From Bacillus rhizoplanae (lineage in GTDB: Bacteria; Bacillota; Bacilli; Bacillales; Bacillaceae_G): DNA of 58,529 bases. Under the pieces are notes generated by a model. That model had not been told where the DNA came from, ran no database searches, and saw nothing but the letters and a program-made list of their open reading frames with translations. This document shows positions 240 through 51,641 of the stretch, piece after piece. The stretch's first letter is position 1. The number at the start of each line of letters is the position of its first letter. Made by a program: the position numbers and the translations under genes. The stretch lies in the NCBI RefSeq assembly GCF_917563915.1, contig NZ_CAKJTI010000022.1:1-58529 (forward strand). Direction: 5' to 3'.

Positions 240-540
240 TTCAGAGATGTGACAGTAAAACGACTGTGAAAGGAAGAGTAGTAATAGGGCGTAGTCCAAG
301 CGAGTCAGGGATGGTGTGAGCCTGATACGAAGCCTGTTATGAAGAACCTCCTGGAGTCGCTAACCGAAATCCTTTTTAGGAAAGTAGACTTAGCCGGGAA
401 CTTCGCCGTTACAAGAAGAACAGTATCGAGTTATCTCTAATCTCCGTACTGATAAGTGAGCAACCTCTGTTGCTAATTTGGGTGGTACCGCGGAACCAAA
501 GCCTTTCGTCCCAGTTTTTTGGGATAGAAGGGCTTTTTTT
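240..540 (+). ncRNA. T-box leader of asnA
   Basis: The leader carries the hallmark T-box GGTGGTACCGCG at 481-492, which pairs with the uncharged tRNA acceptor end. A Rho-independent terminator follows (about 497-540, GCCTTTCGTCCC and GGGATAGAAGGGC arms, then a T run). A long structured 5' part starts at about 245. The downstream gene makes asparagine, so tRNA-Asn is the expected ligand; an AAC triplet occurs at 345-347, but I could not fold stem I to prove it is the specifier. Uncharged tRNA would favour the antiterminator and asnA transcription. Confidence 0.93.
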
Positions 541-3225: not shown

Positions 3226-3315
3226 TGTTACAGGAAAAAGGAAACAGAAAACGGAGCTAATAAAAAAACCGCCAAAAAAGAAGACGATCATAAAGAAACA
3301 TGATCTCTCTTTTTT

Positions 3316-3497
3316 GTAGATAGCTCTTCATATATACACCGCTGTATATATGACAGTTCTGTTTCTATTCGAAAACAGCCCCAATTTACATGTTCAGAGA
3401 AACATATAAATTTCGGCAACCTTTCCTTTCTTCTAAACTCACTGACAATCTCTGTGTCTCCTTTAGAATACTCATAAAAGTTGCAACCTCTATCTCA
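3316..3497 (-). ncRNA. lysine riboswitch (L box)
   Basis: Read on the minus strand, the aptamer opens with GATAGAGGTTGC, continues with AGGAG, CAGTGAG and GAAAGGTTGCCGAA, then GGGGCTG and ACAGAACTGTCAT. It closes with GCTATC, which pairs with the opening GATAG to form P1. This order of conserved blocks is that of the lysine riboswitch. It should shut off lysC when lysine is plentiful by transcription termination. Confidence 0.93.
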
Positions 3498-3717
3498 CGT
3501 CGTTCGGCGAGAGTGATTGGTTGTATGAAGTTGTTGGTAACATTTGTTCCATAGTAATCAAAATGTTGAGAGAAATCAAGTGGGTTATAAAAATTTAGAA
3601 AATTAAATCTATTCTAAAATGAAATGAAAATGATATAAAATATGTTTAAAAGAAGGATTTATAACAATATTTTACAAATTTATTCGTTATATAGATTATA
3701 TGGATGGAGCGGTGTGA

Positions 3718-49736: not shown

Positions 49737-49951
49737 GATATAAGTCGTTAAATTTGTGTAGGATGAATCCTTTTAACTGATTGTAGTATTACTTTATATA
49801 CATATAAAGTGGTAGCTAAGTGCTCATCGAATCCAAGTAGTTCTCTTTCATTTGTTATAGGAGTATTCATAATAAGACGTATGCGCAAAAAATGATGAAT
49901 AAAATAGAAAAATAACGATTTTTTTTATGCTAGTAAATGGAGTTTATTATT

Positions 49952-49979
49952 GTGTCAGCTATATAACTGTGCTAAAATT
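49952..49979 (+). promoter_or_regulatory. likely promoter of the hflX leader
   Basis: TTGTGT (49952-49957) and CTAAAAT (49973-49979) suit a sigma-A promoter (spacing about 16). Transcription would start near 49985, giving a leader of roughly 390 bases before hflX. Confidence 0.45.
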
Positions 49980-50011
49980 TATGTAACTTTTAATGAACGG
50001 AGGGGTCTCCT

Positions 50012-50053
50012 TTGATCTTAATCAGATTACGTCTCAATACTTTGTGCCGATAA
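50012..50053 (+). CDS. 13-residue leader peptide upstream of hflX
   Basis: GGAGGGG (49999-50005) precedes TTG at 50012 by 6 bases. The frame encodes MILIRLRLNTLCR and stops at TAA. The internal Arg-Leu-Arg (R-x-R) motif is the kind that stalls ribosomes with macrolides in Erm-type leader peptides (for example the MRLR of ErmDL). A second frame (ATG 49993, 22 codons) overlaps but has no ribosome binding site. No direct proof of translation is available. Confidence 0.55.
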   Translation: MILIRLRLNTLCR

Positions 50054-50141
50054 TTGAATAGCGCTCAAAGGCTCTGTCTGTGTGCAGAGTGAATGGGATT
50101 GGTCTGTCTCTTTAAAGGAACCCTATTAAACTTATATGTGA

Positions 50142-50173
50142 AAAGAGGGAGGGACGAATACGCCCTCTTTTTG
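50142..50173 (+). terminator. first leader terminator of hflX
   Basis: AAAGAGGG and CCCTCTTT arms around AGGGACGAATACG, followed by TTG and TTTT. Confidence 0.8.
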
Positions 50174-50319
50174 TTTTGCCTTTAAAAACAGAATGATATG
50201 ATGCATGTATACAAACATTTCTTAGAATTGGTGTATCATGCTGGATTTGACGACCATTGAACAAGCCGGCAGCGATGCTTTTTATGTTTATTTGTCGTGC
50301 TTTCATCCGTTTATAAAAA

Positions 50320-50350
50320 ACACAGGCAGTAGCTTGTGTTTTTTATTTTG
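50320..50350 (+). terminator. second leader terminator, 29 bases before hflX
   Basis: ACACAGGC-AGTA-GCTTGTGT (one G-U pair) precedes TTTTTATTTT. It stands directly in front of the hflX ribosome binding site (GGAGG at 50365). Confidence 0.85.
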
Positions 50351-50378
50351 CGCGTAATCGAAATGGAGGAATAAATAT

Positions 50379-51641
50379 ATGGAAAAGTTAGTACAAAAAG
50401 CAATATTAGTCGGAGTGAATTTAAATAATCAAAGTGATTTTGAATATTCGATGGAAGAGTTAGCGAATTTAGCGGAAGCATGCGATGTGGAAGTGGTAGG
50501 GCAAGTTACACAAAATTTACATCGTGTGAACCCATCTCATTATATTGGAACAGGTAAAATTGAAGAAGTGTCAGCGTTCGTGAAAGAAGCCGATGCGAAT
50601 ATGGTGATTTTCAACGATGAGTTATCGCCTTCACAAATCCGAAATTTAGAAGAGGATTTAGAGTGTAAAGTGATTGATCGTACAATTTTAATTTTAGATA
50701 TTTTTGCGCAGCGTGCAAAGACAAAAGAAGCACAATTACAGGTTGAAGTCGCGCATTTACAATATATGATGCCGCGTTTAATTGGTCTTCGCGAATCGCT
50801 TGGAAGACAAAGCGGCGGTGTTGGTACGAGAAACAAAGGTGTCGGGGAAAAGAAACTAGAGCTTGATCGCCGTAAGATTGAGGAGCAAATTGCAGCGCTA
50901 AATAAAGAACTAGAAGCACTTACTTTGCATCGTCAAACGCAGCGTAAACAACGTAAGAAAAATGAAGTACCTGTTGTGTCGTTAGTAGGATATACGAACG
51001 CTGGTAAATCAACAACGATGAATGCGATGCTTGAAATGTTTAACGGATCTGAAGAAAAACAAGTCTTTGAGAAAGATATGTTGTTTGCGACGCTCGAAAC
51101 AGCTGTGCGAAATATTCAATTGCCAGATAACAAATCATTTTTATTAACAGATACAGTTGGTTTCGTTAGTAAATTGCCGCATCATCTTGTGAAAGCATTC
51201 CGTTCGACGTTAGAAGAAGTAGCGGAGGCTGATTTACTCATTCATGTTGTGGATTATGCGAATCCAAACTATGAGCATCTCATTGATATTACAAATCAAA
51301 CGTTAAAACAAATCGGTGTTGAAAATATCCCAACGATTTATGCTTATAATAAAGCGGATGTTATGGAAATTGAAATTCCAAAGGTGCAAGATAATCGTGT
51401 ATATTTGTCGGCTAAACAAAAAGTAGGTATGGATGAACTTGTACAAATGATTTGTACACAAATTTATCAAGATTATATACAATGTGAAATGTTAATTCCT
51501 TATGATCAAGGACAGCTAATTTCTTATTTTAACGAACATGCTCATGTTTTATCGACAGACTATGAAAATGAAGGTACGAAGATTACTGTGGAATGTAAAA
51601 CAAGTGATTTTGAAAAATATAAAAAGTATGTAATACGCTAA
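50379..51641 (+). CDS. hflX: GTPase HflX (ribosome-splitting factor)
   Basis: Binds 50S and splits stalled ribosomes; a divergent relative (HflXr) gives macrolide/lincosamide resistance in Listeria. 420 residues: N-terminal HflX domain, a glycine-rich linker with GRQSGGVGTRNKGVGEKK near 147, a coiled helix pair, and the G domain with GYTNAGKST near 208, DTVGFVSKLP near 252 and NKAD near 326. GGAGG precedes ATG. The surrounding genes are not the ynbB-glnR-glnA set next to B. subtilis hflX (ynbA), so this may be a second paralog. Confidence 0.93.
   Translation: MEKLVQKAILVGVNLNNQSDFEYSMEELANLAEACDVEVVGQVTQNLHRVNPSHYIGTGKIEEVSAFVKEADANMVIFNDELSPSQIRNLEEDLECKVIDRTILILDIFAQRAKTKEAQLQVEVAHLQYMMPRLIGLRESLGRQSGGVGTRNKGVGEKKLELDRRKIEEQIAALNKELEALTLHRQTQRKQRKKNEVPVVSLVGYTNAGKSTTMNAMLEMFNGSEEKQVFEKDMLFATLETAVRNIQLPDNKSFLLTDTVGFVSKLPHHLVKAFRSTLEEVAEADLLIHVVDYANPNYEHLIDITNQTLKQIGVENIPTIYAYNKADVMEIEIPKVQDNRVYLSAKQKVGMDELVQMICTQIYQDYIQCEMLIPYDQGQLISYFNEHAHVLSTDYENEGTKITVECKTSDFEKYKKYVIR

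What the first reader, a model, noticed from the sequence alone, without database searches (positions are those of the whole stretch)
49952..50378. hflX sits behind an attenuator-like leader with an Arg-Leu-Arg leader peptide
The sequence shows a promoter, a 13-codon frame (TTG 50012, RBS GGAGGGG) with Arg-Leu-Arg, two terminators (50142-50173 and 50320-50350) and then hflX. Leaders of this shape let antibiotic-stalled ribosomes bypass terminators at Erm, VmlR-type and Listeria HflXr loci; R-x-R motifs stall under macrolides. Inference: this hflX is an inducible antibiotic-response gene. I do not know of a description in the B. cereus group.
Basis: partly seen in the sequence, partly recalled or inferred. 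Interest (0 to 1): 0.75.

Follow-up and report, generated by a model that had tools for sequence, protein, structure and literature searches.

The report
One drug-sensing leader, many resistance genes
The stretch before this hflX gene is a switch RNA that probably turns the gene on when an antibiotic jams the ribosome, and related switch RNAs sit before at least six other, unrelated kinds of macrolide or lincosamide resistance gene in Bacilli.

Summary
In detail: a TTG uORF (50012-50053, MILIRLRLNTLCR) with Shine-Dalgarno, two terminator hairpins and hflX are present; the leader folds better than shuffles (z -4.57). By sequence the gene is of the Listeria HflXr type. Of 114 hflX upstreams, window included, 72 carry the leader; 0 of 11 second-copy (housekeeping-type) hflX do. 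Part is in print: the uORFC-6-1 motif (hflX, Arg-Leu-Arg, Bacillales), and HflXr-type genes named for B. cereus.

Not found in print in ten searches: a covariance model built only from hflX leaders finds the same RNA before unrelated resistance-type genes. Of 131 examined matches from 299 genomes, 123 precede Mph-, ABC-F-, HflX-, Mef-, RlmA-, Erm- or LmrB-like genes; a macrolide esterase is a weaker eighth. A profile from the uORF's last codons to the conserved block matches 190 of 216 preselected loci, 0 of 216 reversed. Two hairpins and a long-range helix covary across gene kinds. Attenuation by macrolide-stalled ribosomes is likeliest; the antiterminator is unsettled, induction untested.

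The parts
49950..49978 (+). promoter-like site TTGTGT-N17-TAAAAT, extended -10
   Evidence: read by eye; not listed by the consensus scan
49999..50005 (+). Shine-Dalgarno GGAGGGG of the uORF
   Evidence: conserved GGAGG in A1
50012..50053 (+). uORF MILIRLRLNTLCR, TTG start; R-L-R codons 50024-50032
   Evidence: an [RK]-x-[RK] uORF was recognised in 177 of 216 related loci, R-L-R in 129 of them
50002..50015 (+). P0 5' strand: from the end of the SD through the uORF start codon, pairs with 50112-50124
   Evidence: duplex; own against swapped partners z -21.6, 0 of 300 swaps, 129 leaders
50040..50070 (+). P1 hairpin CTTTGTGC (50040-50047) / GCTCAAAG (50063-50070); 5' arm is the end of the uORF
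   Evidence: covariation
50072..50089 (+). P2 hairpin CTCTGT / GCAGAG
   Evidence: covariation
50095..50106 (+). conserved block GGGATTGGTCTG, unpaired in the model; possible RNA polymerase pause site (G-10 50096, T-1 50105, G+1 50106)
   Evidence: conservation, partly forced by how leaders were picked; pause consensus recalled, function inferred
50112..50124 (+). P0 3' strand (TTAAAGGAACCCT)
50141..50174 (+). terminator hairpin T1
   Evidence: a T1-like hairpin was found in 129 of the 154 deduplicated leaders
50316..50350 (+). terminator hairpin T2; ACACAGGC (50320-50327) can pair with P2 loop 50076-50083
   Evidence: pairing register worked out by hand
50379..51641 (+). hflX of the HflXr type, 420 aa
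49994..50131 (+). extent of covariance model R1 (132.1 bits; the window was among its 53 training sequences)

Best explanation
The leader is a ribosome-mediated transcription attenuator of a widespread homologous RNA family that precedes many macrolide/lincosamide resistance-type genes; here it controls a resistance-type HflX (HflXr, a ribosome splitter). Shown by sequence: the uORF with R-x-R, hairpins P1 and P2, long-range helix P0 that takes in the end of the uORF's SD and its start codon, a conserved block, terminators T1 and T2, and homology with leaders of other resistance-type genes. Inferred: without drug, ribosomes clear the 13-codon uORF, P1 and P2 form and RNA polymerase stops at T1 or T2. 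With a macrolide, the ribosome stalls with Leu6 in the P site and Arg7 in the A site; its front edge then lies near 50042, inside the 5' arm of P1, so P1 cannot form, the downstream RNA refolds and transcription runs into hflX. The conserved block may be a polymerase pause that keeps polymerase close to the ribosome. Which strands form the antiterminator is open: the block against the T1 5' arm and the P2 loop against the T2 5' arm are candidates.
For: hflX leaders conserved in 72 of 114 upstreams, 0 of 11 second copies. P1/P2 covariation: 9 of 13 pairs with two-sided changes in hflX leaders, 12 of 14 in leaders of other genes, 0 of 500 shuffles in both. P0 coevolution: 0 of 200 and 0 of 300 swaps as good. 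R1 matches 109 of 299 genomes (E-values are per genome, so about 0.3 chance matches are expected at the limit of 0.001); 123 of 131 examined matches precede seven kinds of resistance-type gene. Block profile: 190 of 216 loci, 0 of 216 reversed. Window HflX scores 501 bits on chain 8a57_D (Listeria HflXr, recalled); a second-copy HflX scores 305. Published precedents, passages read: rli80-hflXr, TlrB stall geometry, Mef(E) and ErmK leaders.
Against: No expression data. Folding with a stalled ribosome masked gives a modest average shift (T1 5' arm paired upstream 0.34 free, 0.45 stalled, 0.39 with the ribosome at the stop, 116 leaders; 46 up and 7 down stalled against free, 33 up and 12 down against stop) and almost none in the window between stalled and stop (0.44, 0.43). 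The block/T1 antiterminator shows complementarity above shuffles but no coevolution (266 of 300 swaps at least as good). In the same swap test a control segment reached z -2.4, so moderate z values there mean little. 31 of 103 upstreams other than the second copies lack the leader, among them L007, the nearest relative by the HflX tree, and 12 copies of the Peribacillus branch. R-x-R was not recognised in 39 of 216 loci, and at least some truly lack it. No second B. cereus-group sequence was available.
Confidence: 0.85

Rival explanations
1. The leaders of the different resistance genes are alike by convergence: each evolved an R-x-R peptide and terminators on its own.
For: PMC11264731 postulates that erm upstream elements may have evolved independently (passages); PMC4335068 saw no homology between the mef(E) and erm(K) leaders beyond the peptide (passages).
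Against: A profile from the uORF's last codons to the conserved block, made from 33 hflX leaders, matches 143 of 169 loci not classed as HflX and no reversed sequence (the loci were preselected by R1). P1 and P2 covary in leaders of other genes and P0 does so over all kinds.
Confidence: 0.05
2. The leader is a small-molecule riboswitch or protein-binding RNA; the uORF is incidental.
For: The block is more conserved than a plain attenuator seems to need.
Against: No Rfam match at gathering score in the leader; R/K-x-R/K is recognised in 177 of 216 loci, in R-L-R, R-I-R, R-F-R, R-V-R and K-F-R forms; 123 of 131 genes behind are of kinds that resist ribosome-targeting drugs.
Confidence: 0.05
3. 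T1 and T2 are ordinary terminators or RNA-stabilising hairpins and hflX is expressed by constant read-through.
For: Expression was not measured; the masked-folding switch is weak in the window.
Against: uORF, P0, P1 and P2 go together with T1-like hairpins (129 of 154 leaders), and the leader is absent before all 11 second-copy hflX genes examined.
Confidence: 0.06

Closest known systems
uORFC-6-1 motif (PMC8632094, passages read)
   Same: primarily before hflX, mostly Bacillales, Arg-Leu-Arg uORF, covarying structure downstream of the start codon
   Different: 51 representatives; the passages read mention no other resistance genes, no P0 and no second terminator; its alignment and figure were not available
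Listeria rli80-hflXr attenuator (PMC6310831, passages read)
   Same: RLR uORF (14 aa), terminator, HflXr-type gene; drug induction shown there
   Different: nucleotide homology with rli80 not tested (no Listeria genome identified here); the passages read speak of one terminator
ErmD/ErmK and Mef(E) transcription attenuators (PMC4335068, PMC10314930, passages read)
   Same: R-L-R peptide; the ErmDL peptide MTHSMRLRFPTLNQ given there is identical to a uORF found here before a Mef-like gene (L208)
   Different: other genes; the published comparison found no homology of the mef(E) and erm(K) leaders outside the peptide
TlrB (yxjB) attenuator of B. subtilis (PMC6851288, passages read)
   Same: R-x-R stall, terminator, RNA polymerase pausing
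   Different: RYR at the peptide's end, 9 aa, stalls with tylosin and not erythromycin; pausing is NusG-dependent
VmlR attenuator (PMC9226507, PMC10201436, passages read)
   Same: attenuation of a ribosome-protection gene
   Different: MIN uORF, arrest at initiation

Membership tests
HflXr resistance-type HflX | HflX GTPase | tested here: met
   TIGR03156 465.7 bits, cut-off 216.75
HflXr resistance-type HflX | lies in the HflXr subfamily, apart from housekeeping HflX | tested here: met
   8a57_D 501 bits against 305 for a second-copy HflX; that 8a57 is Listeria HflXr is recalled, the table says only GTPase HflX. Tree of 114: the window lies in the main group; 9 of the 11 second copies form a clade of their own, 2 (L087, L091) fall with four distant clostridial copies. 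One FastTree run, midpoint root, support not examined, Listeria not in it
HflXr resistance-type HflX | second hflX copy in the same genome | not testable with these tools
   no genome held for the window; 11 of 12 related genomes have two over the cut-off
HflXr resistance-type HflX | drug-induced expression and resistance | not testable with these tools
   needs experiment
uORFC-6-1 motif | R-L-R uORF before hflX with covarying structure after the start codon | tested here: met
uORFC-6-1 motif | fit to the published alignment | not testable with these tools
   alignment not held; no Rfam family matches the leader
R-x-R macrolide attenuators (ErmD/ErmK, Mef) | R/K-x-R/K uORF with SD | tested here: met
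R-x-R macrolide attenuators (ErmD/ErmK, Mef) | intrinsic terminator between uORF and gene | tested here: met
   T1, T2; the simple terminator scan did not list them
R-x-R macrolide attenuators (ErmD/ErmK, Mef) | drug-dependent stall and read-through | not testable with these tools
   needs toeprinting and term-seq
R-x-R macrolide attenuators (ErmD/ErmK, Mef) | mutually exclusive antiterminator | tested here: inconclusive
VmlR-type uORF | MIN peptide, initiation arrest | tested here: not met
   peptide is MILIRLRLNTLCR
Rfam families | match at gathering score | tested here: not met
   window leader and six loci of other gene kinds

The most novel reading that the evidence does not exclude
A single attenuator RNA family, homologous in nucleotide sequence beyond the peptide, has been recruited in Bacilli before at least seven, probably eight, mechanistically unrelated macrolide/lincosamide resistance genes: drug kinase Mph, methyltransferases Erm and RlmA/TlrB-type, ABC-F ribosome protection, Mef-like and LmrB-like efflux, the ribosome splitter HflXr, and (weaker) a macrolide esterase. 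Its core is a uORF, P0, P1, P2 and a conserved, perhaps polymerase-pausing, block. The RNA then works as a beacon that can point to unrecognised resistance genes, for instance the SDR oxidoreductases found behind weak matches.
Probability: 0.8. Interest if true: 0.75.

Novelty: new variant of a known kind. Interest (0 to 1): 0.62.

Why it matters
If one sensor RNA serves all these genes, inducible macrolide resistance in Bacilli is modular: the sensing part is inherited or swapped independently of the resistance mechanism. That bears on the printed suggestion that erm upstream elements arose independently, makes a searchable RNA family out of scattered case studies, offers a way to look for new resistance genes by their leader, and makes the role of a programmed polymerase pause directly testable. 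For the window it says that hflX is probably a drug-response gene, not a housekeeping one.

Tried and rejected
Search of the window's own genome: none held. Relatives in plasmids and viral contigs: none found. Rfam: no leader family. Consensus promoter and terminator scan: did not list the sites seen by eye. RNAalifold on a raw local alignment gave one helix only, so P1 and P2 were set by hand before counting, which favours them; the slid versions reach at most 66.8% paired cells (93.6% observed) and covariation 0.106 (0.227 observed), but one slid version has 8 pairs with two-sided changes against 9 observed. The alignment of other gene kinds (A2) is a partly separate check. Block-against-T1 antiterminator: complementarity above shuffles, no coevolution. 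SD against the T1 3' arm and the P1 loop against the block were weighed by eye and dropped. Ribosome-mask folding: weak.

Limits of the counts. The pause-motif conservation is partly forced, because leaders were picked with loose patterns for it; only G50096 and A50098 in A1 were not asked for. One of 72 leaders was dropped for lacking the pattern, then 53 of 71 kept after deduplication. In one search, 42 of 288 leaders (hflX set and census, which overlap) lacked a recognised SD or block and 246 were deduplicated to 154. A2 used 53 of the 91 references listed. Two of 133 rows were not fetched: one at a contig end, one the leader of L127, an hflX. Beyond the rows shared, 84 rows were examined, chosen by me from the list. 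The 216 loci hold one place twice (L141 and L296). Notebook slips: entry 2 says 113 upstreams (114) and entry 3 says 134 rows (133).

Full report
Observation. The 399-base leader folds at -116 kcal/mol against -92.6 for shuffles, z -4.57, 0 of 100 shuffles as low.

The gene. A scan of genome contigs kept 80 HflX loci, closest 77% identical, none titled as B. cereus group. Of 12 related genomes, 11 have two full-length HflX over the family cut-off. In a tree of 114 distinct proteins (one FastTree run, midpoint root, support not examined) the window gene lies in the large group found by the scan, next to Priestia taiwanensis L007. The 11 second copies are 39-48% identical to the window gene; 9 form a clade of their own, while L087 and L091 fall with four distant clostridial copies. 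The best solved structure is chain 8a57_D, which I recall as Listeria HflXr: 501 bits for the window, 305 for the P. taiwanensis second copy.

The leader in hflX genes. A profile built from upstreams with R-x-R or K-F-R uORFs matches 72 of 114 upstreams, window included: 0 of the 11 second copies and 72 of the other 103. Peptides vary as IRLR, IRVR, GRIRL and IKFRF. The 31 others without it include L007, 12 copies of the Peribacillus branch (L035 with only 249 bases upstream), four Clostridium-type copies (L061, L063-L065) and most distant metagenome copies. A1 (53 deduplicated leaders) gave hairpins P1, whose 5' arm is the last codons of the uORF, and P2: 93.6% of cells paired, 9 of 13 pairs with a two-sided change, 0 of 500 shuffles as high on any of the five measures.

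The leader beyond hflX. Model R1, built only from hflX leaders, was searched in 299 genomes of the order of P. taiwanensis: 109 have a match at E 0.001 or better, against 41 with a close HflXr by protein. In 398 genomes of the class, 111 match. I examined the DNA behind 131 of the 133 matches (loci). The gene behind is Mph-like 31, ABC-F 31, HflX 24, Mef-like 20, RlmA-like 7, Erm 6, LmrB-like 4: 123 of 131; the rest are SDR 4, none found 3, other 1. Kinds come from BLAST clusters and names from NCBIfam on representatives: HflX, Erm and ABC-F representatives pass a curated cut-off, while the Mph, Mef, RlmA and LmrB ones match those families best or nearly so but below the cut-offs of the named allele models, so their drug range is not known. 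About ten of the 123 are weak matches (E 1e-6 to 9e-4; eight ABC-F, two Mef). Of 84 further matches: HflX 23, Mph-like 19, Erm 15, Mef-like 10, ABC-F 8, RlmA-like 3, LmrB-like 2, macrolide esterase 2 (a 120-residue piece of one, NCBIfam mle/EstT families; the other joined it by BLAST cluster), SDR 1, kinase-like fragment 1. Of 22 genomes with two or more examined matches, 19 have different labels behind them, one of these only because a contig ends.

Homology or convergence. A profile of about 62 bases, from the uORF's last codons to the GGTCTG block, from 33 hflX leaders, matches 190 of 216 loci at E 0.001 and 0 of 216 reversed loci; the loci had been picked by R1, so this tests where the likeness lies, not how often it occurs. 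By kind it matches HflX 47 of 47, Erm 21 of 21, RlmA-like 10 of 10, LmrB-like 5 of 6, Mph-like 42 of 50, ABC-F 32 of 39, Mef-like 26 of 30, but SDR 1 of 5 and esterase 0 of 2, so these last two rest on R1 alone. In 53 leaders of other genes (A2) P1 and P2 again covary: 12 of 14 pairs with two-sided changes, 0 of 500 shuffles; P1 commonly reads TTTGAAC/GTTCAAA there and TTTGTGC/GCTCAAA in most hflX leaders. P0, the helix between the SD spacer with the start codon and the GGAACCC element, is stronger within leaders (-11.98) than between leaders (-7.03, sd 0.22; 0 of 200 swaps, 154 leaders; z -21.6, 0 of 300, 129 leaders). On a leader tree gene kinds cluster (43 changes against 88 in shuffles), yet 11 small clades with support 0.9 or more mix labels; nine of these mix two real kinds and some are nested, so recruitment probably happened several times.

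Mechanism. The peptide motif R/K-x-R/K was recognised in 177 of 216 loci, R-L-R in 129. Several misses only have an SD my pattern did not know (for example L236, L257, L320), but SDR (5), esterase (2), four LmrB-like, several Mph-like (L250, L276, L278), an hflX (L335) and the weak ABC-F matches show no R-x-R. PMC6851288 places the middle residue of RYR in the P site, toeprint 15-16 bases on (passages); in the window this puts the front edge at about 50042, within P1. The block GGGATTGGTCTG fits the elemental pause consensus G-10, Y-1, G+1, which I recall; pausing is established for TlrB and VmlR (passages). Masked folding supports antitermination only modestly. The P2 segment against the T2 5' arm looks coevolved in 33 leaders (z -5.3, 0 of 300), though relatedness may help and a control segment of the same test reached z -2.4; the block against the T1 5' arm does not.

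Literature. Passages read: PMC8632094, PMC6310831, PMC6851288, PMC10201436, PMC11264731, PMC9226507, PMC4335068, PMC10314930, PMC9927578. The listings of ten searches showed no paper that I recognised as describing one homologous leader RNA shared by these gene kinds; papers outside the held library were not seen.

Verdict. The finding is sound and its inference likely right; as an hflX leader it is a new member of a described motif. The wider family is the part that looks new. The count of firm kinds was lowered from eight to seven on checking; the odds of the novel reading stay, as they rest on the seven.

Noticed in passing
L282, L284, L286, L287, L343: Weak matches of the leader family stand before SDR-type oxidoreductase genes (NCBIfam short chain dehydrogenase for L282); their uORFs lack R-x-R. 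Possibly an unrecognised resistance gene, or a chance neighbour.
   Followed up: partly
L346, L347: A weak, divergent leader match with uORF MWQINFR precedes an alpha/beta hydrolase of the macrolide esterase (mle/EstT) families.
   Followed up: partly
L141 / L296 (same place): A high-scoring leader (123.5 bits) with no open frame of 90 codons or more starting within 1 kb behind it: an orphan or relic.
   Followed up: partly
L007, L021, L022, L026 and similar: HflXr-type genes of Priestia taiwanensis and the Peribacillus branch, near the window gene in the tree, have no such leader.
   Followed up: partly
L061, L063, L064, L065: Clostridium-type hflX genes have a different, mutually similar terminator about 80 bases upstream, maybe another attenuator.
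   Followed up: no
window 257-516 + and 3313-3500 -: A T-box leader and a lysine riboswitch (Rfam).
   Followed up: no
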